A stretch of 52,139 nt of DNA from a virus: positions 1 through 52,139 of IMG/VR virus record IMGVR_UViG_3300030419_007825. One strand, 5' to 3'. The notes beneath the pieces are model-generated. The model saw only the letters and a program-made list of their open reading frames with translations. It was not told the DNA's origin and searched no databases. This document shows positions 984-14,547 of the stretch, piece by piece (within the stretch, counting starts at the first letter, position 1; every line of letters starts with the position of its first letter). A program made the position numbers and the translations under genes.

Positions 984-1749
984 ACATATATCGTATTCAG
1001 AACTAAAAGATTGGGCTCATTGCCCACACTATCACAAGAAAGCATGGGTGGAAAAGGTTGCTCCCTTTGAGGGCAACGAATATACTGCCTTCGGTAGTGC
1101 AATCCATGACGTCTGCGAGAAAAAACTCCTTAAGGAAGATATTAACGAGACAGAGGTATTCCAGATTGGATTCAATAAGCGGCTGCAGGAATTGGTTGAA
1201 AAAAATATAGAGGTAAATCCACAGAATGTTGAGCAGATGAAAACAGCTGGGCCCGCAATCCTAGCGGAAGTTGAAGATGCCTTGGAAGAATATTTTGGTG
1301 ACTATGAGGTTTTCTCGTCGGAGGAAATGTTATATGTTCCCATCGAGAATTTTAATATTTTCTTTAAAGGTTTTGTTGATGCCGTCGTTAAGGTAGGAGA
1401 CACCTATCATTTATTCGACTGGAAGACTTGCTCATGGGGATGGGATTCGCGCAAGAAAGCAGAAAAGCTCGTCACATATCAGCTTACACTGTATAAGCAT
1501 TTTTTCTGTTTGAAGCACAAAATCGACCCGACTAAGGTAGAAACACACTTTGCGCTTCTTAAAAGAACAGCCAAAAAAGACCGGGTAGAGATATTTAGAG
1601 TAACGAGCGGTCCGAGAAAAACGGAAAACGCGCTTAAACTTCTCTACCAAGCAATATACAATATAACCAAAAAGTTTGCCATTAAAAATCGGCTGAATTG
1701 CCACAAGCCGTATCCGTGCAAGCTGCTCAATACCGAACATTGTCGTTAG
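967..1749 (+). CDS. RecB/Cas4-like PD-(D/E)XK nuclease with probable Fe-S cluster
   Basis: The 260-residue protein shows the RecB-type nuclease core: GSAIH with His47, Asp138 in the FVDAVV strand, the D-x-K pair Asp151/Lys153 in LFDWKT, and a Q-x-x-x-Y motif at Gln172 and Tyr176. Cys19 near the N-terminus and Cys245, Cys251 and Cys259 near the C-terminus give the one-plus-three spacing that holds a 4Fe-4S cluster in Cas4, AddB and related exonucleases. It probably processes DNA ends in phage recombination or replication. There is no helicase domain and no nearby CRISPR array, so a Cas4 role in spacer acquisition is not supported. It overlaps the metalloprotease gene by 17 bases. Confidence 0.8.
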   Translation: MTTKREHISYSELKDWAHCPHYHKKAWVEKVAPFEGNEYTAFGSAIHDVCEKKLLKEDINETEVFQIGFNKRLQELVEKNIEVNPQNVEQMKTAGPAILAEVEDALEEYFGDYEVFSSEEMLYVPIENFNIFFKGFVDAVVKVGDTYHLFDWKTCSWGWDSRKKAEKLVTYQLTLYKHFFCLKHKIDPTKVETHFALLKRTAKKDRVEIFRVTSGPRKTENALKLLYQAIYNITKKFAIKNRLNCHKPYPCKLLNTEHCR

Positions 1750-1757
1750 GAGACAAA

Positions 1758-3008
1758 ATGTCAGATAAAATCAAGATCTTTACGATCAGTGACCATCCTC
1801 TATCGCCTTCTGGGGTGGGCACCCAAACAAAATATATCATTGAAGGTATGCTTAAGACTGGAAAGTATCAATTCATTAGCTTTGGCGGTGCCATGCAGCA
1901 CCCTAATCATCAGCCTCAGAAAACTGAACAGTGGGGAGAGGATTGGATTATTTGGCCGGTTGATGGTTACGGCAATCCGGATATGGTGAGAGCCATGATA
2001 AACCAGAATAAGCCTGATATTTTATGGTTTATGACAGATCCTCGTTTTTATGGTTGGTTGTGGCAGATTGAGAATGAGATTCGCGTTAACGTTCCCATGG
2101 TTTATTATCATGTGTGGGACAACTATCCCTATCCTACTTTTAACCGACCCTATTATCTGTCCAACGATCACATTGCTTGTATTTCTAAGTTGACTTATGA
2201 TATTGTACAAAACGTTGCGCCCGAAGTGGACTCTTCTTATATTCCACATGCGGTGGATGGGGATATTTTTAAGCCCTTAGACCCCAAAAAGAGTGCCGAA
2301 TTTAAGATTTCCAAGGGCTTGGGCAAGAAGTTTGTTTGTTTCTGGAATAGTCGAAACGCCCGGCGAAAACAATCAGGTACTCTTATCTGGTGGTTTAAGG
2401 AATTCTTGGATCGGGTGGGCCACGACAACGCATGCCTCATTATGCATACTGATACGAAAGATGTTCATGGTCAGGACTTAGAAGCAATAATTGCTGAACT
2501 GGGCCTAGTCAATGGCGAGGTATTGTTCTCCCGAGATAAATTAAGCGCTGCAGATCTTTCAGTTGTTTACAATATGGCCGACGTTACTCTTTGCATCTCT
2601 GATGCCGAGGGATTTGGTCTATCAACGTTGGAGTCTCTCTCCAGCGGAACGCCTATCATTGTTAATATGACCGGAGGCCTTCAGGATCAAGTGACGGATG
2701 GCGAGAATTGGTATGGGATTGGCATCGAGCCAAGCTCTAAGGCTATTATCGGCTCTCAACAGGTGCCTTATATTTATGAAGACCGCATGAGTAAGGACGA
2801 CTTCTTGGATGCTCTAGAAAAAATATATAACATGAGCACCAAAGAACGCCACGAATTAGGCCTTAAAGGGTCCGAATGGGCGCGCAATTTCTTTGGGTTT
2901 GACAAGTTCATCGAGCGATGGGATGAATTGTTTACTTCAATTCATGAAAACAAGGGTTCGTGGGAACATCGCGAAGGTTACACACCATATGAAGTGAGGG
3001 TATATTAA
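1758..3008 (+). CDS. GT-B glycosyltransferase (family GT4-like)
   Basis: This 416-residue protein has the two-domain layout of retaining GT-B transferases. The C-terminal half carries an E-x7-E motif in EGFGLSTLE (Glu284 to Glu292), followed by the 'SGTPII' strand that contacts the nucleotide of the sugar donor. The N-terminal half has an acceptor-side GVGTQT loop near residue 20. The ATG at 1758 is preferred over an in-frame ATG at 1698 because it has AGGAGA upstream with good spacing and avoids overlap with the nuclease gene. It opens the carbohydrate island and lies two bases from a second GT-B gene. Donor and acceptor cannot be told from sequence. Confidence 0.85.
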   Translation: MSDKIKIFTISDHPLSPSGVGTQTKYIIEGMLKTGKYQFISFGGAMQHPNHQPQKTEQWGEDWIIWPVDGYGNPDMVRAMINQNKPDILWFMTDPRFYGWLWQIENEIRVNVPMVYYHVWDNYPYPTFNRPYYLSNDHIACISKLTYDIVQNVAPEVDSSYIPHAVDGDIFKPLDPKKSAEFKISKGLGKKFVCFWNSRNARRKQSGTLIWWFKEFLDRVGHDNACLIMHTDTKDVHGQDLEAIIAELGLVNGEVLFSRDKLSAADLSVVYNMADVTLCISDAEGFGLSTLESLSSGTPIIVNMTGGLQDQVTDGENWYGIGIEPSSKAIIGSQQVPYIYEDRMSKDDFLDALEKIYNMSTKERHELGLKGSEWARNFFGFDKFIERWDELFTSIHENKGSWEHREGYTPYEVRVY

Positions 3009-3009
3009 G

Positions 3010-4263
3010 ATGAAAAAGATTTTGATAAAAGGACCGGTCTTGTCGCGCTCGGGCTATGGTGAGCAAGCGCGCTTTGCCCTAAGGGCTTTACGTAGTCGTG
3101 CGGACATATTTGACATTTATATTCTGAATATCCCATGGGGATCTACGGGGTGGTTGAGCGCAAGATCCGAAGAGACTGAGTTTATTAATTTTGCCATCAT
3201 GAAAACGGCTCAATATATCCAAGCTGGCGGCCGATTTGATATATCCCTACAGGTCACGGTACCCAATGAGTTTGAGAAAATAGCTCCTCTGAACATTGGA
3301 TACACGGCGGGCATTGAAACAAATAAGGTAGCCCCACAGTGGATTGAGAAAGGGAACGCGTCCGTCGATAAGATCATCGTTGTATCTAATCATGCTAAAA
3401 AGGTTTTTGAAGAAACCAAGTATTCCATTCAAAACAGCCAGACGGGCCAACTCATTGAAGACTGGGGACTGCAGGTCCCCGTTACGGCCGTCAACTATCC
3501 TGTGCGCCTATCGGATCCGGACCCATTAGATATCGAATTCACCACCGACAAGAACTTCCTGGTTGTTTCTCAATGGGGCCCTCGAAAGAATCTAGATAAT
3601 ACTATTAGATGGTTTGTGGAGGAGTTTCATGACGATGAGACGGTAGGGTTGGTATTGAAAACAAACACGGCTGCCGACTCTATCATGGACAGGGAGCACA
3701 CTGCTGCCCGGTTGCAATCTTTATTGGGCGCCCATCCTGATAGAAAATGCAAGGTTTATTTAGTTCACGGAGAAGTGACGCCTTCACATCTGACGTGGCT
3801 ATATCAACATCCCACCATGAAAGCGCTTATCAATATCGCACATGGGGAGGGATTTGGTTTACCCCTTTTTGAGGCGGCATACAACGGCCTTCCCTTGATT
3901 ACTGTTCCGTGGAGCGGTCAGATGGACTTTATTTGCAAGCCGAACAAAAAAGGGAAGAACTATCCTCGGGTTATTAAAGTTGATTTTAACATCGATAAGG
4001 TACAGAAATCAGCTGTTTGGAAGGGTGTGATCCAGGAAGACTCAATGTGGGCGCATGCAAAAGAAGGGTCCTATAAAGCAGGCCTCCGTGCAGCTATAGA
4101 TAAAGAGGGACATCACCGAAAAGAAGCCATAGCCCTCCAGAAACATATACTGGAGAATTTTACCGAGGAAGAGATGTATAAGCAGTTTGCTGAAAATGTT
4201 TATAATCCTTCGGAGGAGGAGATGGAGTGGCTAGCAGCCCTCTCTGAAATAGAGATATTATAA
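3010..4263 (+). CDS. GT-B glycosyltransferase (family GT4-like)
   Basis: The protein has 417 residues. Its N-terminus (ILIKGPVLSRSGYGEQAR) is the glycine-containing loop that binds the acceptor side in GT-B enzymes. The donor site is marked by HGEGFGLPLFEA, an E-x7-E motif with Glu280 and Glu288, followed by 'NGLPLITVPWSG'. It differs clearly from the preceding transferase apart from these motifs, so the two probably make different linkages. A GTGAGGG sequence upstream serves as ribosome binding site. The stop codon shares a base with the start of the next transferase gene, so three transferases in a row are likely translated together. Confidence 0.85.
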   Translation: MKKILIKGPVLSRSGYGEQARFALRALRSRADIFDIYILNIPWGSTGWLSARSEETEFINFAIMKTAQYIQAGGRFDISLQVTVPNEFEKIAPLNIGYTAGIETNKVAPQWIEKGNASVDKIIVVSNHAKKVFEETKYSIQNSQTGQLIEDWGLQVPVTAVNYPVRLSDPDPLDIEFTTDKNFLVVSQWGPRKNLDNTIRWFVEEFHDDETVGLVLKTNTAADSIMDREHTAARLQSLLGAHPDRKCKVYLVHGEVTPSHLTWLYQHPTMKALINIAHGEGFGLPLFEAAYNGLPLITVPWSGQMDFICKPNKKGKNYPRVIKVDFNIDKVQKSAVWKGVIQEDSMWAHAKEGSYKAGLRAAIDKEGHHRKEAIALQKHILENFTEEEMYKQFAENVYNPSEEEMEWLAALSEIEIL

Positions 4264-5114
4264 TGAAGGTTTTATTTGTTGCCGACCACTATCAGGAACA
4301 AATGAAATTTGGCGGAGGAGAAAACAACGATTCGGTTTTAATTCATCATCTCCGAAGTCATGACAATGTCGATATAACGTGCCTATACACTTCCACCACA
4401 ACTGTGGACCAAATGCGGGAGTACGATAAGGTCATTGTTGGAAACTTTATCTTTTTAAGCGAAGAAGCAAAACAATATTTGATCAACAATAAGAAATACT
4501 TGATCTATGAGCATGATCATAAATATGTAAAAACTAGAGATCCCTCAAAATTTGTAGACTTTATAGTTCCTTCCGATCAATTGGTTAATAGAGATTTTTA
4601 TGAAGGAAGTGATCAAGTAGTGGTTTTGAGCAAGATTTGCGAGGAAGTGTTAACAACGAATATTCCAGCCGCCAAGGTGCACAGTATTGGCTGCAGCTTA
4701 TGGACAAAGGACTTTTTTCATTTAGTTAAAAATTTAGAGTTATCTCCGAAGACGAGAGATGTGTGTATACTTCAAAGTCCCAATCCTACTAAAAATTATG
4801 CAGCCACTGTTAACTATTGCATTGCGAAGGGTCTGGATTATACCGCCATCTTTTCCCCAAGTCACACAAAGTTTCTAGAACAGATGGCATGCCATAAGAG
4901 ATTTTTATTTATGCCCACGGTACTAGAAACGTTTTCGCGTGTTTGCGCAGAAGCCAAAATGTTAGGACTTCAAATAATTACAAATCCAAAAATGATCGGG
5001 ATGTTTAGTGAAACATGTAGCAGCCTTTCTGGGTCTGAACTCCAATCGGCGCTATTAGAACGAAATGAAAGAGCCTTAAAATATTTTTCGGATTGGGTAT
5101 TATCCGATGGTTAG
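4263..5114 (+). CDS. GT-B-like glycosyltransferase, short form
   Basis: At 283 residues this is shorter than a typical GT4 enzyme. It starts with a Rossmann strand and a glycine-rich FGGGEN loop. The C-terminal half has 'ILQSPNPTKN', which resembles the 'R-x-x-P-x-K' donor-phosphate region, and ETFSRVCAE, an E-x7-E motif at Glu222 to Glu230. The middle part (YEHDHKYV, IVPSDQLV) resembles the hinge region of GT-B proteins. The substrate is unknown. The gene overlaps the RpiB-HldE fusion gene by 8 bases, tying the transferases to the sugar-activation genes. Confidence 0.7.
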   Translation: MKVLFVADHYQEQMKFGGGENNDSVLIHHLRSHDNVDITCLYTSTTTVDQMREYDKVIVGNFIFLSEEAKQYLINNKKYLIYEHDHKYVKTRDPSKFVDFIVPSDQLVNRDFYEGSDQVVVLSKICEEVLTTNIPAAKVHSIGCSLWTKDFFHLVKNLELSPKTRDVCILQSPNPTKNYAATVNYCIAKGLDYTAIFSPSHTKFLEQMACHKRFLFMPTVLETFSRVCAEAKMLGLQIITNPKMIGMFSETCSSLSGSELQSALLERNERALKYFSDWVLSDG

Positions 5115-5976
5115 AATAGGCTTGGCATCCGATCATAATGGCGTCGCACTAAAAAAGGAAATGGCGGAGTTTCTGCGTAAATTAGAAGATGTGTGTATTG
5201 TAGATTTGGGCCCCTTTGAAGAGGGTAAAAAAGTAGACTATGTTGATTATGCCAATCAATTGGCACAAATTTTATCTAATGGAGATGTTGATAAAGGCAT
5301 CTTAATATGTGGTACGGGCGTTGGCATGAGTATTGCTGCCAATCGGTTTGAGAAAGTCCGGGCTGCTCTTGTTCATAACATCCTCACCGCTCCAAAGTGC
5401 CGGGAACACAATGATGCCAATGTACTGTGCTTGGGAGCGTGGGTGGCAACGGCAGAGGAAAACTTTAAGATACTTGAGTCTTGGTTGGAGACGGATTTCG
5501 GCCATGGCCGACACGTCAAAAGGGTGGAGAAATTATCTACTTCCAAGCAAAAGATTGTTTTTACAAATGGTGTTTTTGATATTCTTCATGCTGGTCACAT
5601 CAATTTGCTAAATTTTGCTAAGTCCTTAGGGGATAAGCTGATTGTGGGCATCAATTCCGATGCAAGCGTTCGGTCAATTAAAGGGGAGAATCGCCCAGTG
5701 AATAAGGAGACTGATCGCAAGGCACTGCTGGAGGCCCTCGCTCCGGTGGATGAGGTGATAATTTTTGATGACGAAAAGGCCCACACTTTAGTACTCGAAG
5801 TCAGTCCATCTGTGCTCGTGAAGGGAGGGGAGTGGACAGCCGACGAGGTCCGCGCTCGCGATGGAATACCCCCAGAGGTGGAGATTAAAATTTACCCGAT
5901 TGTGGGGGACTATTCTACAACTGCTATTATTAAGAAAATTCATGAAAAAGATGATTGGAAAAAGCAAGGATCCTAA
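5107..5976 (+). CDS. Fusion: RpiB-type sugar-phosphate isomerase + HldE C-domain (RfaE2) nucleotidyltransferase
   Basis: Two complete enzyme domains share one 289-residue chain. Residues 1-143 are RpiB/LacAB-like: ASDHNG at 7-12, the catalytic-type Cys68 in ICGTGVGMSI, REHNDAN at 99-105 and the arginine-rich GRHVKRV at 134-140. Residues 149-280 match the nucleotidyltransferase that makes ADP-heptose (HldE C-domain, RfaE2): HAGH at 161-164, NSDASV at 183-188, VKGGEW at 238-243 and a STTAIIKKI tail. Bacterial ADP-heptose synthesis uses the SIS-family isomerase GmhA, not RpiB. The fusion suggests that here the RpiB domain makes the aldose phosphate that is later activated by the C-domain; this is inference. 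It overlaps the sugar-kinase gene. Confidence 0.9.
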   Translation: MVRIGLASDHNGVALKKEMAEFLRKLEDVCIVDLGPFEEGKKVDYVDYANQLAQILSNGDVDKGILICGTGVGMSIAANRFEKVRAALVHNILTAPKCREHNDANVLCLGAWVATAEENFKILESWLETDFGHGRHVKRVEKLSTSKQKIVFTNGVFDILHAGHINLLNFAKSLGDKLIVGINSDASVRSIKGENRPVNKETDRKALLEALAPVDEVIIFDDEKAHTLVLEVSPSVLVKGGEWTADEVRARDGIPPEVEIKIYPIVGDYSTTAIIKKIHEKDDWKKQGS

Positions 5977-6877
5977 AAGGGTTTTGGTGTTGGGAGATTC
6001 CATTTTAGACCATGATATTGTCTGCAATGCAATGGGTCTTTCTTTGGAGACGCCGACTTTAAAAGCCCGTCTTCATTCGGAGAGTTACAAATTCGGTGGC
6101 GCCGCCAACGTTGTTAATAATTTATTAGCTCTCGGATCTTTTGTAACTTACGTTACTCCTGTGGCTGCCGATAAATATGAGTCAAAGTACCATAAGTGGG
6201 AGCATCCTCGATTAGATCTGATCCCCCTTAGTTACCAGGGACAAAACATAGTAAAGTCTCGATATTGGATCAAGCGCGGTGAACACTCTTATAAGCACCT
6301 TCAAATTAACCAAGGAACCTTATTTGTCGACGTGGAAAAAGCGCTAAAGACGATTAGCGATATTGTAGTCGAGGGGATATATGATGCAATCATTTTAGTG
6401 GACTATCGAGGCGGCCTATTTTCCAGGAATGAAGTCAGTCGTAAGTTGGTAGAGGCGATATCATCTACTCATTCATGTGTTTATGCCGCATCGCAAGTGT
6501 CGGATAGGGAGAGTCAATACTCACTTTTTGAAGGGGTAGATGTTATTTGTTTGAATGAACAAGAAGCGCGCTCAGAGCTTGAAGATTTTAGTCCAATCCC
6601 CGAGGATATTTTGCGTCTTTCTCGGCATTTGGATACCAGAGTTTGTGTTACATTGGGATCGCATGGAAGCACTCTACATACTCGTATCGACACTGTTGAA
6701 AGTGCTGATGCCTATAGTGTGGCCGTTAAAGATACTTGCGGCGCCGGCGACAGTTTCCTCGCCGCCCTAGTGGCATCAGACGAGGATTTAGAGTTTAGCA
6801 ATAAGTGGGCCGCAGCATCGACACAACAGATAGGAACAAGTGTCCCTAACTTAGAAGAGGTGTTGGCATGGGAATAA
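5942..6877 (+). CDS. PfkB-family sugar kinase, HldE N-domain (RfaE1)-like
   Basis: About 311 residues, the usual length of the kinase half of HldE. The N-terminus has VLVLGDSILDHD, as in RfaE1, followed by GGAANVVNN, the sugar-binding loop. The C-terminal signature DTCGAGDSFLAAL carries the PfkB catalytic aspartate and the anion hole. In bacteria this enzyme phosphorylates D-glycero-D-manno-heptose-7-phosphate at C1. In E. coli the kinase and nucleotidyltransferase are one protein; here they are separate genes overlapping by about 35 bases. The in-frame ATGs at 5942 and 5951 are both possible; an open frame reaching to 5861 is rejected because it lacks family sequence. A close relative acting on another sugar phosphate cannot be excluded. 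Confidence 0.85.
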   Translation: MKKMIGKSKDPKRVLVLGDSILDHDIVCNAMGLSLETPTLKARLHSESYKFGGAANVVNNLLALGSFVTYVTPVAADKYESKYHKWEHPRLDLIPLSYQGQNIVKSRYWIKRGEHSYKHLQINQGTLFVDVEKALKTISDIVVEGIYDAIILVDYRGGLFSRNEVSRKLVEAISSTHSCVYAASQVSDRESQYSLFEGVDVICLNEQEARSELEDFSPIPEDILRLSRHLDTRVCVTLGSHGSTLHTRIDTVESADAYSVAVKDTCGAGDSFLAALVASDEDLEFSNKWAAASTQQIGTSVPNLEEVLAWE

Positions 6878-7548
6878 AAGACAGGGTTTTAGAGGCCAAT
6901 CAATGGATTGTAGATAAAGGCCTTGTTGAGCTAACATGGGGGAATGTGAGTGCGGTGGCGACCAATGGGGATTCGGTGGTTATTAAGCCATCGGGAGTTC
7001 AATTAGATACCACTACCAGAGATGACATGGCTGCCGTTGATTGGGATGGTAATCATCTTTCGGGACAAAAACCGTCGGTAGATACCCCATCTCATTTGGC
7101 TTTGTATAATAGCTTTCCTGAAATTGCTAGCATTGTTCACACGCATTCTAAGTATGCTACTATATTCGCCCAAGCGGGGCACCCAATTCCGTGCTTGGGG
7201 ACAACACATGCCGATTATTTTTATGGGGATGTTCCCTGTGTGCCCCACCCCCCCGAGAAGGAAGTCGAAAATGACTACGAGGAAAATACTGGCCGAATAA
7301 TAGGTGAATATTTTAGCGAGAATGAGTTAAACTGTTTGTATATTCCGGGATGTGTGGTAAAGGGACATGGAGTTTTTACATGGGGTCAAACGATAGAAGC
7401 CGCCTTGGAAAATGCATATGTGCTAGAGGTGGTAGCAGAAATGGCATATAAAACGTTGATGCTGGACCGCTATAGTTGCTTGGCTGATTTTGTTTTAGAA
7501 AAGCATTTCGGCCGCAAACATGGGGATACTAAATATTATGGCCAGTGA
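6868..7548 (+). CDS. araD: L-ribulose-5-phosphate 4-epimerase (AraD family)
   Basis: The 226-residue protein aligns by eye along its whole length with AraD. It has GNVSA at 25-29, KPSG at 40-43, the zinc-binding HTH at 91-93, the second zinc site in GHG at 167-168, Asp116 in THADYF matching the catalytic aspartate, and the characteristic C-terminal KHGDTKYYGQ. AraD interconverts L-ribulose-5-phosphate and D-xylulose-5-phosphate; the related UlaF and SgbE do the same reaction. The family also contains aldolases, but the YYGQ tail favours the epimerase. A GAGG ribosome binding site lies in the end of the kinase gene, which it overlaps by 10 bases. A run of seven C lies at 7248-7254. Confidence 0.88.
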   Translation: MGIKDRVLEANQWIVDKGLVELTWGNVSAVATNGDSVVIKPSGVQLDTTTRDDMAAVDWDGNHLSGQKPSVDTPSHLALYNSFPEIASIVHTHSKYATIFAQAGHPIPCLGTTHADYFYGDVPCVPHPPEKEVENDYEENTGRIIGEYFSENELNCLYIPGCVVKGHGVFTWGQTIEAALENAYVLEVVAEMAYKTLMLDRYSCLADFVLEKHFGRKHGDTKYYGQ

Positions 7549-7951
7549 AATTAAGTACGGACCGCAAGAGTTGCCTCCTATTGATAGCGTGGTGAAAGAG
7601 GTGCACAAATATTGGGGAGACATGAAGACCCTCTTTGAAAATGATCAATATTCTGTAAAGAGAATATTCATGAAAAAGGGAACCCAAAGTAGTTTAGAAT
7701 ACCATGTTAAAAAAGAGGAATCTTACTACATAGAATCCGGGAAGTTGAAAGTAGGTACTCGCATAGGCCGCGCCCGAAACACCTCTCTCGTGTTAAACCA
7801 AGGTGATGTATTTCATATTCCACTGGGATTTATGCATATGAGGATAGCCCTAGAGGATACGGTCATCATAGAGTTTTCTACTCTGGATGACGATGCTGAT
7901 TCTCACATAGTAGAGGACGGCAAAACTTATGTTCATAAGGAGGAAGAATAA
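7538..7951 (+). CDS. Cupin protein, phosphomannose-isomerase-C-terminal-like
   Basis: The 137-residue protein is a single cupin barrel. Motif 1 is seen as YHVKKEESYYIESG, with a histidine and glutamates as metal ligands, and motif 2 as GDVFHIPLGFMH, with a histidine near the end. The pattern resembles the C-terminal cupin of bifunctional mannose-1-phosphate guanylyltransferase/phosphomannose isomerase (type II). It may be a sugar or sugar-phosphate isomerase or epimerase in the same pathway as its neighbours, but single-domain cupins have many functions. The ATG at 7538 is preferred to 7520, because protein similar to the family begins there; it overlaps araD by 11 bases. Confidence 0.7.
   Translation: MASEIKYGPQELPPIDSVVKEVHKYWGDMKTLFENDQYSVKRIFMKKGTQSSLEYHVKKEESYYIESGKLKVGTRIGRARNTSLVLNQGDVFHIPLGFMHMRIALEDTVIIEFSTLDDDADSHIVEDGKTYVHKEEE
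7937..7943 (+). promoter_or_regulatory. Strong Shine-Dalgarno that fixes the transaldolase start
   Basis: AAGGAGG lies nine bases before the ATG at 7953. It settles the transaldolase start at 7953 rather than at the upstream in-frame codon at 7929, which would add residues not found in the family. It is among the strongest ribosome binding sites in the island and lies inside the end of the cupin gene. Confidence 0.75.
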
Positions 7952-7952
7952 G

Positions 7953-8621
7953 ATGAAGTTATTTATTGATACAGCAAATTTAGATGAGATTAGTACTGCT
8001 CTAGAGTATGGTCTCGCACAGGGGGTAACAACAAATCCCTCTCTGCTGGCTAAAGAGCCGCAAGCAGACTTTTATGCTCATATCCAGAGGATTGCTGATG
8101 TGTGCACCGAGTTAAGCCCGGATATTCCTTTGTCCGTAGAGGTTTTCGCACAAACACCAGATGCAATGATCGACCAGGCCCATCATATCGTGGGAACAAT
8201 TAAATACACTAATTTAAATATCAAAATCCCCGTGGGGTTTGATGAAATGAGGGTGGTAAAAGCCCTCAGCAATGATGGGGTGAGGGTGAACTGTACTTGC
8301 TGTTTTACAGCCACTCAGATGCAGCTCGCCGCAGCCGCTGGCGCTCGTTATGTATCACTTTTTTACAATCGCGCTCTGGACAGCCAGATCGACGCCCTGC
8401 AAACTCTGCGCCGCACTAGAAAATTTATTGATACTAATCTTCTCAATTGTGAGATCATTGCGGGAAGTATTAGAAATGCTTATGACCTTGAGGACTGTTG
8501 GGATGCTGGGTGCGATATTGTAACAGCAGGGATGCCAGCCATACGCAAGTCGGTCGCGCACTTAAAGACAGACGAATCAGTGGAAGGGTTTTTGAAGGAT
8601 TTTGCAGCATGGATCGAATGA
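7953..8621 (+). CDS. talC: Transaldolase (TalC/MipB-type)
   Basis: The 222-residue protein has the short form typical of TalC and fructose-6-phosphate aldolase. It starts MKLFIDTANL with Asp6, has VTTNPSLL at 25-32, Glu63, and NIKIP with Lys91 as the Schiff-base lysine. NCTCCFTATQ at 113-122 and the YVSLFYNR strand complete the barrel. Transaldolase moves a dihydroxyacetone unit between sugar phosphates and can make sedoheptulose-7-phosphate, the precursor of activated heptoses. TalC is a known metabolic gene of cyanophages. Here it sits inside a glycan island, which suggests precursor supply rather than general pentose-phosphate flux; that is inference. Confidence 0.9.
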   Translation: MKLFIDTANLDEISTALEYGLAQGVTTNPSLLAKEPQADFYAHIQRIADVCTELSPDIPLSVEVFAQTPDAMIDQAHHIVGTIKYTNLNIKIPVGFDEMRVVKALSNDGVRVNCTCCFTATQMQLAAAAGARYVSLFYNRALDSQIDALQTLRRTRKFIDTNLLNCEIIAGSIRNAYDLEDCWDAGCDIVTAGMPAIRKSVAHLKTDESVEGFLKDFAAWIE

Positions 8622-8938
8622 CTTACGTAATTGATATTGACGACACCATATGTCGTACCAACGGCAGCGATTACGAAAATTCCCAACCTCTAAATGACCG
8701 GATTGCAGCGATAAATAAGTTGTATGAGGAGGGGCATACCATATTGTTTTTAACCGCTCGTGGAATGTGTCGAAACAACAATGATCAATTAGGCGCGATC
8801 GCTGAATTGTACAATTTTACCCACGATCAACTTGTGGCCTGGGGAGTTAAATTTCATAAATTGTTTTTGGGCAAGCCGGCTGGGGATGTGTACATAGACG
8901 ACAAAGCCTGTAAGGATACGGATTTTTTTGATGTATGA
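8609..8938 (+). CDS. Small HAD-superfamily sugar-phosphate phosphatase, Cj1435-like
   Basis: The protein has about 109 residues and is a minimal HAD fold. Motif I is DIDDT at 9-13 with both catalytic aspartates, motif II is the threonine in FLTARGM, and the C-terminal YIDDKA supplies the magnesium-binding acids after a GKP lysine. The arrangement resembles the small phosphatases of capsule clusters (Cj1435c type). In this context it could remove the C7 phosphate of a heptose bisphosphate, the GmhB step missing elsewhere in the window; this is inference. The ATG at 8609 has AAGGA ten bases upstream; 8618 forms an ATGA overlap with transaldolase and is an alternative. Confidence 0.75.
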   Translation: MDRMTYVIDIDDTICRTNGSDYENSQPLNDRIAAINKLYEEGHTILFLTARGMCRNNNDQLGAIAELYNFTHDQLVAWGVKFHKLFLGKPAGDVYIDDKACKDTDFFDV

Positions 8939-9626
8939 AACTCCGGACTGGTTTTTTGACAAGTTAAGGCAAAAACACAACTTTTGCTATGTAAGATACA
9001 ATGATGGCGAAATGATGGGCATTGATAGGGTTGGGGCCATAGCAGCAAGAGGGGACCAAGTTGTTAACCGTTCCTTACATGAGAAATTAATCGAGGGTAT
9101 CTCGCACCGGCAGGAAGATTATTATATTGGACTTCCCTGTGGGACTTGCTTCCCCAAACACGCCCAATTAGCCGCAGAGCTGACGCGGGGCCATGGTTGG
9201 ATAACATCAGCAGTGCTGCTAACCAATAGAAATTGGAAAAAATTCTATGATAATTTTCCGGACGCTTGCGGTGAGAGGTCTGTAATATGGGTGGGTGGCA
9301 AATCTCAATCTAAGCAAAATTTAATAGACTATGGACTGAATATAAAGAAGTGTGTTCTGGTGCCAGAAAAAAATAGTTGGACTTACTATGAAAAGTTAAA
9401 AGAATTAGTGCCCCCTCTTTTTGTTAAGAACGACATTGTCGCTGTATCGCTGGGTCCGACAGCAAGGGTGTTGTGTAAAGAATGGTTTGAGGAATACCCC
9501 GATACAACTTTTATAGATATGGGGAGCCTCTTAGACCCAGTAACGCGAGGGGTGTATTTTACTGCCCATAAGGGCTGGGACGAGACAGGGTTCAACCTGC
9601 AGAACAGGTGTCCAGAGTGCAATTGA
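8931..9626 (+). CDS. Putative GT-D-type glycosyltransferase
   Basis: The 231-residue protein has RYNDGE at about residues 22-27, close to the 'R-F/Y-x-D-G-E' signature of GT-D fold transferases (formerly DUF1792). Further on are GLPCGTC, a region with alternating strands and helices, and a VSLGPTARVL stretch with an 'IDMGSLLDP' segment near the end that resembles the C-terminal nucleotide-sugar site of this family. Three cysteines at the C-terminus (including CPEC) may bind metal. It overlaps the phosphatase gene by 8 bases. The donor is unknown. The fold assignment rests on the DGE motif and general layout. Confidence 0.55.
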   Translation: MYETPDWFFDKLRQKHNFCYVRYNDGEMMGIDRVGAIAARGDQVVNRSLHEKLIEGISHRQEDYYIGLPCGTCFPKHAQLAAELTRGHGWITSAVLLTNRNWKKFYDNFPDACGERSVIWVGGKSQSKQNLIDYGLNIKKCVLVPEKNSWTYYEKLKELVPPLFVKNDIVAVSLGPTARVLCKEWFEEYPDTTFIDMGSLLDPVTRGVYFTAHKGWDETGFNLQNRCPECN

Positions 9627-10468
9627 AGAAAGTGCTTTTTGCCGGCCCATGGGTGGGAGAGTTTGGTTGGGAACTATTTTGCTGGCATGCCTACGTTAGA
9701 AGCCTTTCAAGGTTTTATGATGAGACTGTGTGTGTTGGCCCACCACATTCCGAGTTCATGTATAGAGATTTTTGTGATAAGTACATAAACTTCACCCCTG
9801 AATATGGTGATTATAGAGACTCGTTTTACAAAGTTGGATTTTCTATTGATGGTCCCCTTATTCGTGGACTAATGAAAAAAGCAGAAATCTCTACAGAAGA
9901 AAATCAGGTTTCGATATTTGCACCTCGGAGAATTGGAGATCCGCCGCGTACACATTACAATGAAAAGTTCCAATTTGGCAATCAACTTATTGCACCTGAG
10001 TATATTAAATTTGGAACACAAAGAGAAGAATACAAAAACACCATTATTTTTCACGCTAGGAATAGGACCTTGCGTCAGGGAGATAACTGGCACGAAGATA
10101 ATTGGAAACCCTTAGCTGAATCTTTGCTTACTAAAGGATACGAGATAGTTTCAATAGGGCTCAAGAGCGAGTCGCTGCATATTGAGAACACAACAGACAA
10201 GAGAGAATGCGATCAACAAGAGTTATTAGATATTTTACATAGTGGTGTTGCGATTTTTGGACCATCATCCGGCGCAATGCATTTAGCAACCCTATGCGGA
10301 TGCTCGCAGATAGTTTGGACAACCGACTATAATTTAGAGAGGTATACAAAAAATTGGAACCCTTTCGAAACGCCTGTGTTATTCTTGTCGAAGCATGGCT
10401 GGCAACCACCTCCCGAATATGTATTTGAGGAATTTGGCAAATGGGGGCGCCACGGAGGAGGTATATAG
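9608..10468 (+). CDS. GT9 (heptosyltransferase)-like glycosyltransferase
   Basis: The protein has about 286 residues. It begins with a Rossmann strand and the loop GEFGWEL and has a C-terminal half with GPSSGAMHLATLCG. The latter matches the 'G-x-D-S-G-x-M-H-L-A-A-A' signature of GT9 heptosyltransferases, with serine in place of aspartate. Between them is IIFHARNR, resembling the start of the donor domain. A transferase of this family suits the activated-heptose genes upstream. The start is unclear: GTG at 9608, GTG at 9617 or TTG at 9623 are all possible and all overlap the previous gene. It could equally use another NDP-sugar. Confidence 0.65.
   Translation: MSRVQLKKVLFAGPWVGEFGWELFCWHAYVRSLSRFYDETVCVGPPHSEFMYRDFCDKYINFTPEYGDYRDSFYKVGFSIDGPLIRGLMKKAEISTEENQVSIFAPRRIGDPPRTHYNEKFQFGNQLIAPEYIKFGTQREEYKNTIIFHARNRTLRQGDNWHEDNWKPLAESLLTKGYEIVSIGLKSESLHIENTTDKRECDQQELLDILHSGVAIFGPSSGAMHLATLCGCSQIVWTTDYNLERYTKNWNPFETPVLFLSKHGWQPPPEYVFEEFGKWGRHGGGI
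10454..10461 (+). promoter_or_regulatory. Shine-Dalgarno that fixes the sulfotransferase start
   Basis: GGAGGAGG lies nine bases before the ATG at 10471. It supports that start over an in-frame ATG at 10441 inside the preceding gene. The site overlaps the end of the GT9-like coding sequence. Confidence 0.7.
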
Positions 10469-10470
10469 GA

Positions 10471-11133
10471 ATGAGTAAGAGTAGCGAAATTGAAAAGCAT
10501 TTTTTGGATGCATTTGCAACCACTAATAAAGAGTTTATTTATATACCAATACCAAAGACGGGCACCAGATCAATCCTTAAACTGATGAATAAGATTTATG
10601 GAAAAGACCTTAAATTTTCTCACCACTCCTATAAATGGGTAGCCAACACGATCTCCCAAGCAGAGTTGGCGCGCGCAAAAGTTTTTGCAACCGTTAGAAA
10701 TCCCTGGGCTAGGATGTATTCTATATTTTCATATTATGGACCTCAGAGTAAGTTCCCTCTTAAGTCAAAAAACTTCAGGGATTTTATAATGACATCTCCC
10801 ATAGAATATGCCAATTGGTATCAGGACGAGGGCTGCTGGGAAGATTTTTATAATCAATCTCGATGGCTCGCAGATGTGTCCGGAGAAATAAAAGTTGATA
10901 AAATATTTAAATTAGAAAATTTAAATAATCGAGATCTTAATGGTTTTTTTGGAGTAAGTGGGCACAAGATTTATCATGTAAATCGGTCTACCTCCAAGAA
11001 GCAACATTACTCTTTATTTTACGATGATGATATGATTGAAGTCGTTTATAAATTGTGCAAAGAGGACATCGACAATTTTAATTATAATTTTGAATACAAA
11101 GAGAACACAGAGAAGAGGGATAAAAATGGATAA
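10471..11133 (+). CDS. PAPS-dependent carbohydrate sulfotransferase
   Basis: The 220-residue protein carries both co-factor motifs of this family. PKTGTRSI at 28-35 is the 5'-phosphosulfate loop with its lysine and threonine. VRNPWARMYSIFSYY at 75-89 is the 3'-phosphate site with Arg76 and Ser84. This is the layout of the carbohydrate sulfotransferase 2 family, which moves sulfate from PAPS to a sugar hydroxyl. The phage would depend on host PAPS. Its place among glycosyltransferases argues for a glycan substrate. This gene and the next are noticeably AT-rich compared with the rest of the island, suggesting separate acquisition. Confidence 0.83.
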   Translation: MSKSSEIEKHFLDAFATTNKEFIYIPIPKTGTRSILKLMNKIYGKDLKFSHHSYKWVANTISQAELARAKVFATVRNPWARMYSIFSYYGPQSKFPLKSKNFRDFIMTSPIEYANWYQDEGCWEDFYNQSRWLADVSGEIKVDKIFKLENLNNRDLNGFFGVSGHKIYHVNRSTSKKQHYSLFYDDDMIEVVYKLCKEDIDNFNYNFEYKENTEKRDKNG

Positions 11134-11755
11134 AAAATTGTTAAAGCTTACGGAAGATGGCTTGAGCTTATGGTATGAAGAAAATTATGATAAAAGTTGG
11201 TTTGTTGAGTGCACGGGTGTGGAATATTTAAAGAATTATTACACAAATCATCGCCCTAGACTGTTTGAGCGCTATCACGGATGGTTTGGTAGCCTAGGCC
11301 TAACAGGACATGGACTAGATCTTGGATTCACCAATGGAAGAGGGATTTACTTCTTTTCTAGGATCTTCCCACACTGCAAAATTACGGCCATTGATTTTAA
11401 TAAAAATACAGAATTAATACACGACCACCTAAAGAATTTAATTCCACAGATTGTAGAACTAAGAACCGAAAATTGTTCTGCTCTTTCCGATCCAGATGAA
11501 AAATATGATTTTTGCACCTCGACAGATTTTTATGAACATGTAGATGAGAGCACATATTTTAAGTCAATAAGAGAAGTTCATAGAGTTTTAAAAAAGCAAG
11601 GAAAATTTTGTGTATATTTAGGAAAAACAATCCTACCGGAGCACATTAATTTGAGACCTGATTGGCAAGTATTCCAAGATATGAAACATAACGGCTTTAA
11701 ATTTATAGATAAAAGAAATGATTTACTAGTTTTTGAAAAAAATGAAACTTCTTAG
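11126..11755 (+). CDS. SAM-dependent methyltransferase (class I)
   Basis: The 209-residue protein has motif I in GLDLGFTNGRG, an acidic strand end in ITAIDFNKN (motif II) and a region CTSTDFYEHVDE followed by 'VHRVLKKQGKFCVYLG', the usual layout of Methyltransf_11-type enzymes. Next to a sulfotransferase and many transferases it most likely makes an O- or N-methyl group on a sugar. The ATG at 11126 overlaps the sulfotransferase stop by 8 bases and has AGAGGGA upstream. A longer open frame back to 11036 lies wholly over the sulfotransferase gene and is rejected. Very AT-rich: by hand count only 12 of 60 bases at 11701-11760 are G or C. Confidence 0.8.
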   Translation: MDKKLLKLTEDGLSLWYEENYDKSWFVECTGVEYLKNYYTNHRPRLFERYHGWFGSLGLTGHGLDLGFTNGRGIYFFSRIFPHCKITAIDFNKNTELIHDHLKNLIPQIVELRTENCSALSDPDEKYDFCTSTDFYEHVDESTYFKSIREVHRVLKKQGKFCVYLGKTILPEHINLRPDWQVFQDMKHNGFKFIDKRNDLLVFEKNETS

Positions 11756-12749
11756 CGTAATTGGCACAAGGCCACAATATATTAAAATAAAGCCATTCTA
11801 TGATTTTTGCAAAAGGCAAAACATAGATCATCAAATTCTGGATACACTTCAGCATTACTCCGATAATGTTTCGAAAGATTTAATTGGTGACCTTGACCTC
11901 AGAATAGATTTTACCTTAAAAACACGAAAAGACAGCGAGCTTTCCTTCATCGCGGGTGCACTAGAAGAAATAGGACAAATTCTTCAAAGAGAAAGTCCCG
12001 ATTATGTTTTGGTTTATGGTGACACGAACTCTACCCTGTGTGCGTCTTTAGCGGCCTATAAATTGAATATTCCCGTTGCTCATGTGGAAGCAGGGCTGCG
12101 ATGTGGAGATATTCGCGTCCCGGAAGAGGTAAACCGGATCTTTGCAGATACAGTAGCGGCGATACAATTGTGTTCTTCCAAAGCTGGAATGAAAAACCTT
12201 CAACGTGGAATATATTGTGGGGATTTAGAGTATGAGATTTTAAACACCATAAACCCTTCAGTTGTACATGGCGATTTTGGAGTAATGACAATTCATCGAC
12301 AGAGTAATACCACGCCAGAGCAATTGCACAAGATTCTAGATTTTTGCTCCCAAATTCCTCACCATATTCGTTTTTATGTACACCACCGTACGTTGCCATT
12401 CTTGCGCTACGTCGACCTTCCTACCAATATAGAGGTGTACGAATCGTGTCCTTATTCGGAGATGGTGAAGAACTTGGCAGAATGTAAATTTATTTTGACA
12501 GACTCGGGTGGGATTCAGAAAACGGCCCCTTTTTTTGGCAAGAAAACTTTGGTGTTTCGGTCTAAAATTGAGTGGACCGAGACCGAAGAGGCCGGGTATG
12601 TCAAAAAAGCGGATTATAGCAAAGAGAGCCTAAATTGGCTCCTATCAGGGAATACACGACGCTCGCCTGCTTTCTATGGGAGCACCACTAACACGACTTC
12701 GGAGATAATCTATAATTCCATCGCCCAAGACCTGGAGGGTCGAGCCTAA
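11742..12749 (+). CDS. UDP-HexNAc(A) 2-epimerase, WecB/WbpI family
   Basis: The 335-residue protein is a non-hydrolysing UDP-N-acetylhexosamine 2-epimerase: VIGTRPQ at 6-12, GDTNST at 93-98, HVEAGLR at 114-120, PEEVNR at 127-132, HR at 185-186 and DSGGIQK at 255-261. Two differences from WecB/MnaA stand out. The segment after DSGGIQ reads KTAPFFGKK, and the later motif is IEWTE instead of the 'TERPE' of MnaA. As I recall, WbpI and WlbD, which epimerise UDP-2,3-diacetamido-2,3-dideoxy-glucuronic acid, have 'TEW' here. The neighbouring WbpE- and WbpB-like genes support the same reading. Start at 11742 is chosen over a TTG at 11733. Confidence 0.85.
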   Translation: MKLLSVIGTRPQYIKIKPFYDFCKRQNIDHQILDTLQHYSDNVSKDLIGDLDLRIDFTLKTRKDSELSFIAGALEEIGQILQRESPDYVLVYGDTNSTLCASLAAYKLNIPVAHVEAGLRCGDIRVPEEVNRIFADTVAAIQLCSSKAGMKNLQRGIYCGDLEYEILNTINPSVVHGDFGVMTIHRQSNTTPEQLHKILDFCSQIPHHIRFYVHHRTLPFLRYVDLPTNIEVYESCPYSEMVKNLAECKFILTDSGGIQKTAPFFGKKTLVFRSKIEWTETEEAGYVKKADYSKESLNWLLSGNTRRSPAFYGSTTNTTSEIIYNSIAQDLEGRA

Positions 12750-13837
12750 TGAGTGTGCCATTATTTGATTTGCGGAGAGTTATTCATCCGCATGCGTCTT
12801 CTTTAAGGAGGGCATTTGAATCCTCTCTCGAAACCTGTCATTTTATCAACGGTCCTGCAGTTACAGACTGGGAGGCCGACTTGGATGACTATTTGGGGGC
12901 TGGTAAGAGTTTGGGCATCTCAAGTGGAACGGATGCATTGTTGGCCATTTTTATGGCCCTAGGACTTGAACCTGGGAGCGAGATATTGGTGACGTCCTTT
13001 ACATTTGTCGCCTCAGCGACGTCTATCGTAAGAGCAGGACTCAAGCCGGTGTTCGTTGATACAGCACCCCAATCTTTCCACCCTGGTCTTGAAGAATACG
13101 CGGCCGCCATGACTACAAATACTAAGGCAGTATTGTTAGTTCATATCTTCGGTGCGCCCAACAATATGGCCGAGATGGTTAACTTTTGCAAAACCAATGA
13201 TCTCCTATTAATTGAAGATTGCGCCCAGTCTTTAGGCGCCGAATGGGAAGGTCAAAAAATAGGTACTTTTGGGGATGCTAGTGCGTTCAGTTTTTTCCCG
13301 GCAAAGAACCTAGGTTGTTTTGGGGACGGCGGCGCCGTATCGACACCCTCGACCAAAATATATGAAACTATTAAAGCAATTAGGTCACATGGTGCAAAAA
13401 CAAAGTACCATACCGAAATGATGGGAGGCAATTTTCGTCTAGACACAATTCAGGCATCAATCTTGAGTGTTCTCTTGCCTGCATTGTCCGGTTGGCTTTC
13501 CCAGAGGGGCGAGAATGCTTTATATTATCTTGAGCACATTAATGAAAGTAAAAGCACACAACTTCCTGAGAATCTCAAAGGGCATTCGTGGAACCAGTTT
13601 ACTCTACGATCGTCCAGGCGCGATGCTCTTAAAATATATTTAGATGAAAATAACATAGGAAATGCAGTATACTATCCTATACCGTTACACAAACAACCTT
13701 TATTTGCCACCACTACTACCCAGTGTCTTCCGAACGTAGAAAAACTGTGTAAAGAGGTTTTATCGCTTCCAATATATCCTGGATTAACGCGAGATGAGCA
13801 AATAGAAGTAGTCGATAAGATTAACTGTTTTAAATAA
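12749..13837 (+). CDS. PLP-dependent sugar aminotransferase (DegT/DnrJ/EryC1, WbpE-like)
   Basis: The 362-residue protein fits the family length. SSGTDALL at 58-65 binds PLP phosphate, EDCAQ at 156-160 holds the PLP-ring aspartate and glutamine, and FFPAKNLGCFGDGG at 182-195 carries the Schiff-base lysine, Lys186. The GxNFRLDxIQAS stretch near 230-240 is also typical. It would transfer an amino group from glutamate to a keto-sugar nucleotide. Next to a WbpB-like dehydrogenase, the likely substrate is UDP-2-acetamido-3-keto-hexuronic acid, the WbpE reaction. The start is supported by GGAGGG and a TAATG overlap with the epimerase gene. Confidence 0.9.
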   Translation: MSVPLFDLRRVIHPHASSLRRAFESSLETCHFINGPAVTDWEADLDDYLGAGKSLGISSGTDALLAIFMALGLEPGSEILVTSFTFVASATSIVRAGLKPVFVDTAPQSFHPGLEEYAAAMTTNTKAVLLVHIFGAPNNMAEMVNFCKTNDLLLIEDCAQSLGAEWEGQKIGTFGDASAFSFFPAKNLGCFGDGGAVSTPSTKIYETIKAIRSHGAKTKYHTEMMGGNFRLDTIQASILSVLLPALSGWLSQRGENALYYLEHINESKSTQLPENLKGHSWNQFTLRSSRRDALKIYLDENNIGNAVYYPIPLHKQPLFATTTTQCLPNVEKLCKEVLSLPIYPGLTRDEQIEVVDKINCFK

Positions 13838-13872
13838 TGTTGGTTGACAAGGACTGAACAGGTGGGAACACA

Positions 13873-14547
13873 ATGATATATATATTAACATACGACTCTT
13901 TTCATAGAAAAACGCAAGATCTCCTTTTGCGCCTTAAGGCTACCGGAGTGTCAGAGGCGCATGTATTAATTACCCCATGGGAAGATAGAAAAAATCACGT
14001 TCCCCTCATTCCTCATAGACCCCCCACAACTTTAGAAGTTGATACTGTCACTCTTTGCGACAGATTATCTTTTAAAAGCACAAAGATTGATTCATTCGAT
14101 GAGATGCCCCCACTGGAAGAAGAAGACTTTATTTTGATTGGGGGCGCCGGTATCCTACCAGAAAAAGTAGTAAAAAGCGGAAAAGTTATCAATTCTCATC
14201 CCGGCTATCTTCCGTACTGCCGCGGCCTGGATTCCTATAAATGGGCTATCTACGAAGGTAAGCCAATTGGGGTTACAACCCATATAGTATCGGAAGGGTG
14301 TGACACTGGTAAATTGATTAAGGCAAAACTGGTGCCGTTATATTCATGGGATACTTTTCATAGTGTAGCTCAAAGACAGTACGAACTAGAAATTGATATG
14401 CTTGTCGAGGCTATAAAAGATATAAAAACCTCTAAGTTGGAGCCCATAGACGAAACTCGGTCTTCGCCCAAAAGAAGAATGAAACACTCCATGGAGGTTC
14501 GTTTGTTGTCTCGATTTCAACAGATAGTAGACAAGTGTGAGATTTAA
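13873..14547 (+). CDS. Sugar N-formyltransferase
   Basis: The 224-residue protein has the catalytic triad of 10-formyl-tetrahydrofolate-dependent formyltransferases: Asn107 and His109 in INSHPGYLPY, and Asp144 in EGCDTGKLI. The fold also includes IGGAGILP before it and GVTTHIV between. It lacks the C-terminal domain of Met-tRNA formyltransferase and is not close to PurN in surroundings, so a nucleotide-sugar amine is the likely acceptor, as for VioF, FdtF and related enzymes. It sits between the aminotransferase and the 3-dehydrogenase, where a WbpD acetyltransferase would be expected. GGTGGGA serves as ribosome binding site; 35 bases separate it from the previous gene. Confidence 0.85.
   Translation: MIYILTYDSFHRKTQDLLLRLKATGVSEAHVLITPWEDRKNHVPLIPHRPPTTLEVDTVTLCDRLSFKSTKIDSFDEMPPLEEEDFILIGGAGILPEKVVKSGKVINSHPGYLPYCRGLDSYKWAIYEGKPIGVTTHIVSEGCDTGKLIKAKLVPLYSWDTFHSVAQRQYELEIDMLVEAIKDIKTSKLEPIDETRSSPKRRMKHSMEVRLLSRFQQIVDKCEI

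What the first reader, a model, noticed from the sequence alone, without database searches (positions are those of the whole stretch)
5107..6877. RpiB-HldE(C) fusion beside a split HldE kinase: a possible GmhA-free activated-heptose pathway
One protein joins an intact RpiB-type isomerase (Cys68 in ICGTGVGMSI) to an intact HldE-type nucleotidyltransferase (HAGH), and the next gene is the matching PfkB kinase. Known heptose pathways use GmhA (SIS fold) as isomerase. RpiB relatives act on several aldose/ketose phosphates, so the fusion suggests that an RpiB domain replaced GmhA, or that the activated sugar is a pentose or hexose. With the nearby HAD phosphatase and transaldolase, all reaction classes from sedoheptulose-7-phosphate to NDP-heptose are present.
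Basis: partly seen in the sequence, partly recalled or inferred. Interest (0 to 1): 0.82.

Follow-up and report, generated by a model that had tools for sequence, protein, structure and literature searches.

The report
Phage six-gene cassette activating unidentified sugar
Many phages carry the same six-gene set, marked by a fused sugar isomerase and nucleotide-adding enzyme, that probably makes an activated sugar for the phage's glycosyltransferases; the sugar is probably not the standard bacterial heptose, and which sugar it is remains open.

Summary
ORF 5107-5976 joins an intact RpiB domain to an HldE-C/HldC-type nucleotidyltransferase, and an HldE-N-like PfkB kinase follows. It is far more than chance: 50 further virus contigs and one archaeal MAG contig encode the full-length fusion at about 50-68% identity. 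It heads a conserved cassette: fusion, kinase, AraD-like 4-epimerase (usually present), cupin, TalC transaldolase, small HAD phosphatase.

The chemistry fits ketose-P to aldose-P to 1,n-bisphosphate to 1-phosphate to NDP-sugar. No GmhA-type (SIS_2) gene was found in 26 virus records.

The claim that RpiB replaces GmhA in the ordinary heptose pathway is weakened. The cassette kinase differs from 34 bacterial HldE proteins at seven HldE-conserved positions. Its nucleotidyltransferase lacks the EXTP motif predicted to contact heptose-1-P (0/37, against 30/34). AraD keeps the catalytic residues of L-ribulose-5-P 4-epimerase. Some of these phages carry a second, more HldE-like set.

Best reading: a phage pathway to an activated sugar other than D-glycero-D-manno-heptose; a pentose is favoured, a differently configured heptose possible. 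The sugar is not identified. New variant of a known kind.

The parts
5107..5976 (+). RpiB - HldE-C-type nucleotidyltransferase fusion, 289 aa
   Evidence: full-length homologues in 50 virus contigs and one archaeal MAG contig
5107..5535 (+). RpiB domain (residues 1-143); D9, H10, D44, Y45, C68, T70, H101, R135, H136, R139 kept; R113-equivalent is W112
   Evidence: residue roles from PMC4783025
5554..5946 (+). nucleotidyltransferase domain (about residues 150-280); HAGH, KG and STT kept; EXTP motif absent; E242, R249, R251, D252 invariant in the cassette
   Evidence: 46-48% identity to BpHldC 5xf2
5942..6877 (+). PfkB kinase, HldE-N-like (listed ORF from 5861; likely start 5942 or 5951); GAGD motif kept, other HldE-conserved positions replaced
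6868..7548 (+). AraD-type L-ribulose-5-phosphate 4-epimerase; catalytic and metal residues kept, S75 to V
   Evidence: (281 bits to E. coli AraD 1jdi, next family 81 bits)
7520..7951 (+). single-domain cupin, function unassigned, highly conserved in the cassette
7953..8621 (+). TalC-type transaldolase (Glu in SVEVF, Phe in SLFYNR); listed ORF from 7929
   Evidence: (182 bits to B. subtilis transaldolase 3r8r, about 98 bits to FSA)
8609..8938 (+). small HAD phosphatase, EcbF/BcbF type (listed ORF from 8498; likely start 8609)
1698..5114 (+). three genes directly upstream (1698-3008, 3010-4263, 4263-5114); same order upstream of the cassette in L055, L057 and L062. The first two are glycosyltransferases by Pfam (the second weakly); 4263-5114 has no Pfam hit. 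Candidate users of the product (inferred).
9608..10468 (+). GT9-like glycosyltransferase downstream (no clear Pfam hit itself; 49% identical to the GT9-like part of L055:11834-13606)

Best explanation
The fusion is part of a portable phage pathway that makes a nucleotide-activated aldose for the phage's own glycosyltransferases. Proposed order: TalC, with host transketolase, raises the supply of a ketose phosphate. The AraD-like enzyme, where present, inverts C4 of that ketose phosphate. The RpiB half converts the ketose phosphate to an aldose phosphate. The kinase phosphorylates C1 to give a 1,n-bisphosphate. The HAD enzyme removes the terminal phosphate. The nucleotidyltransferase half makes the NDP-sugar, which neighbouring glycosyltransferases use. 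The cupin probably performs a further isomerisation or epimerisation. The sugar is most likely not D-glycero-D-manno-heptose. My ranking: a pentose, such as L-ribose or L-arabinose from xylulose-5-P through AraD, 0.45; a heptose of other configuration made from S7P, 0.30; D-glycero-D-manno-heptose, 0.15; other, 0.10. Shown here: gene content, order, conservation, intact catalytic residues and the lineage-wide residue shifts. Inferred: every reaction, their order, the role of the cupin, the sugar, and what is glycosylated.
For: Conserved cassette: among 33 fusion clusters (90% identity; 21 at 70%), kinase is within 6 kb in 32, cupin 32, TalC 31, HAD 29 and AraD 27; some misses are contig ends. 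Catalytic residues are kept in the RpiB domain (36-37 of 37) and in AraD (32/32 for N28, S74, D76, H95, H97, T116, D120, H171, Y229), and GAGD in the kinase (37/38). Shifted positions: kinase GLT and YKQN instead of RPV and QQRD; nucleotidyltransferase EXTP 0/37 against 30/34 in HldE, with E242/R249/R251/D252 invariant; RpiB W112 37/37 where 13/21 bacterial RpiB have Arg; AraD S75V 29/32. Two sugar systems in one phage: second sets of nucleotidyltransferase, HldE-like kinase and cupin in L057, L063 and L064, and a second cupin of the other type in L067 and L076. Glycan-gene setting: glycosyltransferases beside the cassette in the window, L055, L057, L062; GT9 beside it in L002; GT11, FkbM methyltransferase or GDP-mannose dehydratase near it in other lineages.
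Against: No enzyme of the cassette has been assayed and no product is known. RpiB passes the ordinary rpiB cut-off, and the nucleotidyltransferase is 46-48% identical to HldC, so standard substrates are not excluded. The EXTP contact was predicted by docking, not seen in a crystal, and cyanophage nucleotidyltransferases also lack it (0/3). The kinase positions were not mapped onto a structure here. AraD is absent in five of 32 cluster representatives, with at least three supported changes on the fusion tree, so a route that needs AraD cannot be universal unless the host supplies it. The kinase is the most variable part and is shortened to about 250-260 aa in many lineages. GT9-family neighbours (L002, L055, weakly others) fit a heptose.
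Confidence: 0.6

Rival explanations
1. One reading: RpiB has taken the place of GmhA, and the cassette makes ordinary activated D-glycero-D-manno-heptose from sedoheptulose-7-phosphate supplied by TalC.
For: HldE-N and HldE-C are the nearest families; transaldolase-type TalC makes S7P (activity from family knowledge); no GmhA in 26 virus records; GT9 neighbours.
Against: Kinase and nucleotidyltransferase both depart from HldE at HldE-conserved positions. AraD is unexplained. Usual RpiB substrates (D-ribulose-5-P, D-allulose-6-P) have the opposite C3 configuration to S7P, and the expected aldose would differ at C2 from GmhA's product (stereochemistry from general knowledge). The HldE-like cyanophage sets also lack GmhA, so its absence is not diagnostic.
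Confidence: 0.15
2. A central-metabolism module: RpiB, TalC and AraD rewire the host pentose phosphate pathway toward ribose-5-P and nucleotides; the kinase and nucleotidyltransferase are incidental.
For: rpiB and tal genes are reported as viral auxiliary metabolic genes (PMC10653327); RpiB catalytic residues are intact.
Against: RpiB is physically fused to a sugar nucleotidyltransferase in 52 of 54 loci examined, the kinase, HAD and cupin are kept with it, and the setting is rich in glycan genes.
Confidence: 0.07
3. The fusion is an assembly or frameshift artefact, or a decaying gene.
For: None found.
Against: The same join occurs in 33 clusters from many independent contigs, with catalytic residues kept in both halves; the model shows two well-formed domains.
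Confidence: 0.01

Closest known systems
ADP-heptose pathway: GmhA, HldE (kinase + adenylyltransferase), GmhB, HldD
   Same: Same logic: isomerase, C1 kinase, phosphatase, nucleotidyltransferase; kinase and nucleotidyltransferase are homologous to HldE-N and HldE-C/HldC
   Different: RpiB instead of GmhA, fused to the nucleotidyltransferase; kinase separate; HAD is EcbF/BcbF type, not GmhB; extra AraD, cupin and TalC; HldE-conserved residues replaced
Cyanophage kinase/nucleotidyltransferase/HAD/cupin genes (S-SSM7, P-TIM68)
   Same: Homologous kinase, nucleotidyltransferase, HAD and cupin near one another in T4-like cyanophage genomes; cupin and HAD-type genes also in S-CAM1 and S-CAM3
   Different: No RpiB, AraD or TalC in the regions read; kinase keeps the HldE RPV pattern; cupin has HxH where the cassette has ExH
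RpiB / AlsB / LacAB sugar-phosphate isomerases
   Same: RpiB fold and catalytic residues; nearest solved structure C. thermocellum RpiB
   Different: Fused to a nucleotidyltransferase; lineage-wide N11, V46 (32/37), W112 and G132
Phage RB69 arabinosylation genes (PMC6024577)
   Same: Phage-encoded genes proposed to supply an activated pentose to a phage glycosyltransferase
   Different: RB69 candidates are SIS-related and NTP-transferase-like proteins, not RpiB/HldE-type; no evidence here that DNA is the acceptor

Membership tests
HldE/HldC heptose-1-phosphate nucleotidyltransferase | TIGR02199 equivalog-domain score | tested here: not met
   158 bits against a cut-off of 181.5
HldE/HldC heptose-1-phosphate nucleotidyltransferase | EXTP motif predicted to contact heptose-1-P (PMC7993394) | tested here: not met
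   0/37 cassette, 30/34 HldE, 11/17 split bacterial, 0/3 cyanophage
HldE/HldC heptose-1-phosphate nucleotidyltransferase | HxGH, KG and TNG motifs | tested here: met
   HAGH in the window; KG 37/37, TNG 31/37
HldE-N / HldA heptose-7-phosphate kinase | HldE-conserved R-P-V and Q-Q-R-D positions (conserved in HldE; roles not mapped on a structure) | tested here: not met
   GLT 35/38 and YKQN 30/38 in the cassette; RPV 33/34 and QQRD 31/34 in HldE
HldE-N / HldA heptose-7-phosphate kinase | PfkB GAGD catalytic motif | tested here: met
   37/38
RpiB ribose-5-phosphate isomerase B | TIGR01120 equivalog score and catalytic D, H, C, H residues | tested here: met
   143.7 against 138.65; residues invariant
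RpiB ribose-5-phosphate isomerase B | Phosphate-side Arg113 (PMC4783025) | tested here: not met
   W in 37/37; Arg in only 13/21 bacterial RpiB, so weak as a criterion
AraD L-ribulose-5-phosphate 4-epimerase | Metal and catalytic residues of E. coli AraD | tested here: met
   D76, H95, H97, T116, D120, H171, Y229 in 32/32; S75 replaced in 32/32 (V in 29). NF006047 cut-off passed, TIGR00760 not
TalC transaldolase rather than FSA | Closer to transaldolase; Glu and Phe at the discriminating positions (positions from memory) | tested here: met
   182 bits to 3r8r, about 98 to FSA; SVEVF and SLF
Activated-heptose pathway as a whole | GmhA (SIS) isomerase | tested here: not met
   SIS_2 0/26 virus records; no hit with bacterial GmhA profile
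Activated-heptose pathway as a whole | Product is an NDP-heptose | not testable with these tools
   needs enzymology or mass spectrometry

The most novel reading that the evidence does not exclude
A pathway found almost only in phages makes a nucleotide-activated sugar not known from cells, for example NDP-L-ribose built from xylulose-5-P through AraD and RpiB, or an NDP-heptose of the talo or galacto series, and the phage uses it on its virion, its DNA or the host surface.
Probability: 0.35. Interest if true: 0.8.

Novelty: new variant of a known kind. Interest (0 to 1): 0.6.

Why it matters
It gives a specific, testable marker (the RpiB-nucleotidyltransferase fusion) for a widespread phage sugar-activation pathway. 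If the product is a rare sugar, it would add a nucleotide sugar and an isomerase route to known biochemistry, and would bear on how phages decorate virions, DNA or host surfaces. It also suggests that two cyanophage gene labels used in databases are wrong, which affects claims about phage heptose metabolism.

Tried and rejected
1) A single-sequence scan of viral contigs found nothing; alignment-based queries found the relatives. 2) INPHARED phages hold only single-domain matches, no fusion. 3) A first GmhA profile was contaminated by two cyanophage proteins annotated 'phosphoheptose isomerase'; its hits in the HAD genes were false. A bacterial-only profile gave no hits. 4) Cyanophages as GmhA-bearing comparators: rejected, since those genes are HAD proteins. 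5) Cellular origin: one MAG contig among 84,980 species scanned with exact peptide patterns (limited sensitivity); in its phylum only that same MAG among 87 genomes; 0 of 299 in the phylum of L014's genome (a betaproteobacterium) and 0 of 296 in the phylum of L003's genome (a Saprospiraceae MAG) at E 1e-60; the last two searches had no positive control. 6) DNA arabinosylation as the purpose: considered because of RB69, neither supported nor excluded. 7) Cupin function by fold: cupins of many functions match about equally, so no assignment. 8) GT9 profile across loci: 9 loci, mostly weak, so only mild support for heptose. 9) Literature: no held paper joins RpiB, heptose and HldE; other searches found no description of the fusion; most subscription papers are not held.

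Full report
What is there. The window is a 52 kb virus record. A baseplate wedge-like gene lies at 27900-29717, and a region of glycosyltransferase and sugar genes lies at about 1.7-16.5 kb. ORF 5107-5976 encodes an RpiB domain followed by an HldE-C-type nucleotidyltransferase domain. The genes downstream are a PfkB kinase (5942-6877), an AraD-like protein (6868-7548), a cupin (7520-7951), a TalC transaldolase (7953-8621) and a small HAD phosphatase (8609-8938). They overlap or nearly touch, all on the + strand.

More than chance. An alignment-based scan of IMG/VR found 50 other contigs with a full-length fusion at about 50-68% identity. A scan of GTDB genomes found one, in a 5 kb contig of an archaeal MAG, L002. 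Among 33 clusters at 90% identity, kinase and cupin are within 6 kb of the fusion in 32, TalC in 31, HAD in 29 and AraD in 27. Gene order is nearly fixed; exceptions are AraD before the kinase (L100, L101, L103), HAD before the fusion (L070, L071, L077, L100, L101), HAD displaced (for example L086-L089, L096, L097) and no AraD (L002, L073-L075, L079, L102). Nine of 26 records tested carry a T4-type gp23 capsid gene. The flanks differ between lineages, and in L058-L061 they lie on the opposite strand, so the cassette appears to move as a unit. L104 carries an unfused RpiB with the same W112 and VDYV features, a kinase of cassette type, TalC, cupin and a divergent AraD-like gene, with a nucleotidyltransferase elsewhere.

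Domains and catalytic residues. AlphaFold2 gives two compact domains with a low-confidence linker, matching RpiB 3he8 and HldC 5xf2. RpiB catalytic residues are invariant or nearly so in 37 sequences. AraD keeps the metal and catalytic residues in 32 sequences and its profile scores 281 bits to E. coli AraD, against 81 for the next family. TalC is transaldolase-like rather than FSA-like. The kinase keeps GAGD in 37 of 38. The cassette therefore looks functional.

Why probably not ordinary heptose. I compared cassette kinases with 34 bacterial HldE proteins, 31 of which lie in loci where GmhA was also detected. Positions R59/P62/V66 of HldE are G/L/T in 35 of 38 cassette kinases, and Q144/Q145/R148/D150 are Y/K/Q/N in 30 of 38 (numbering from ORF start 5861). 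All three cyanophage kinases keep RPV and R148/D150. In the nucleotidyltransferase, the EXTP motif that docking places at heptose-1-P in BpHldC (PMC7993394) is present in 30 of 34 HldE and 0 of 37 cassette proteins, while E242, R249, R251 and D252 are invariant. The RpiB domain has W at the position of the phosphate-side Arg113 of LdRpiB (PMC4783025) in 37 of 37; bacterial RpiB have Arg in 13 of 21. AraD S75 is V in 29 of 32. These changes suggest a shared substrate that differs from the standard ones. They were not mapped onto ligand-bound structures, and the EXTP argument is weakened by cyanophage proteins that also lack it.

Two systems in one phage. L057, L063 and L064 carry a second nucleotidyltransferase, kinase and cupin close to the cassette, and L067 and L076 a second cupin. 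The second-set nucleotidyltransferases keep EDTP and the kinases keep R148/D150, though not the full RPV/QQ pattern. The second cupins have HxH where cassette cupins have ExH. Two such sets in one phage are best explained by two different products (inference).

Which sugar. AraD points to a pentulose phosphate: xylulose-5-P to L-ribulose-5-P, which an RpiB-type isomerase might turn into L-ribose-5-P or L-arabinose-5-P. TalC and GT9-family neighbours (L002 strongly, L055 weakly) point to a heptose. AraD has changed state at least three times on the fusion tree, so it is an accessory step. The stereochemical arguments are from general knowledge. I rank pentose first, but the evidence does not decide.

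GmhA. No SIS_2 protein was found in 26 virus records and a bacterial GmhA profile found none in the cassette loci. These records may be fragments, and the host could supply GmhA. The cyanophage regions I read also lack GmhA; the genes annotated 'phosphoheptose isomerase' there are homologous to the cassette HAD.

Literature. Viral surveys list rpiB, tal and rfaE genes separately (PMC10653327, PMC7029224). None of the searches in the held library found the fusion or the cassette. I did not search outside that library.

Limits. No activity, product or acceptor is known. The cupin's role is unassigned. The two 0-of-about-300 cellular searches lacked a positive control. Kinship of the phages beyond gp23, their hosts and their habitats were not examined.

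Noticed in passing
L107:8067-8402, L108:6778-7116; window 8609-8938: Cyanophage genes annotated 'phosphoheptose isomerase' (and PHROG phrog_1238 with that label) are homologous to the cassette's EcbF/BcbF-type HAD protein and do not match a bacterial GmhA profile; the label looks wrong.
   Followed up: partly
L107:8380-8781, L108:6347-6778; window 7520-7951: The neighbouring cyanophage gene labelled 'nucleotidyltransferase' or 'cysteine dioxygenase' (phrog_7851) is a cupin related to the cassette cupin.
   Followed up: partly
L057:11688-13173, L063:12675-14185, L064:10372-11882: A second nucleotidyltransferase-kinase-cupin set, more HldE-like, sits just downstream of the cassette.
   Followed up: partly
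window 11733-14547: WecB-like 2-epimerase, DegT-type aminotransferase (family matches) and a formyltransferase-like gene (by eye, untested) in a row, suggesting a separate formamido-sugar module; a sulfotransferase-family gene is at 10441-11133.
   Followed up: no
L002:3146-3940: In the archaeal MAG contig the cupin is doubled (264 aa) and AraD is missing; the contig is 5 kb, so viral origin or misbinning is possible.
   Followed up: no
L110:7017-8435: A 595 kb uncultured phage (LR756511) encodes a one-piece kinase-nucleotidyltransferase of HldE type.
   Followed up: no
L057:8852-9622, L062:8837-9598: The cassette kinase is shortened to about 255 aa, with IGAGD in place of DTCGAGD context; still open but the least conserved part.
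   Followed up: no
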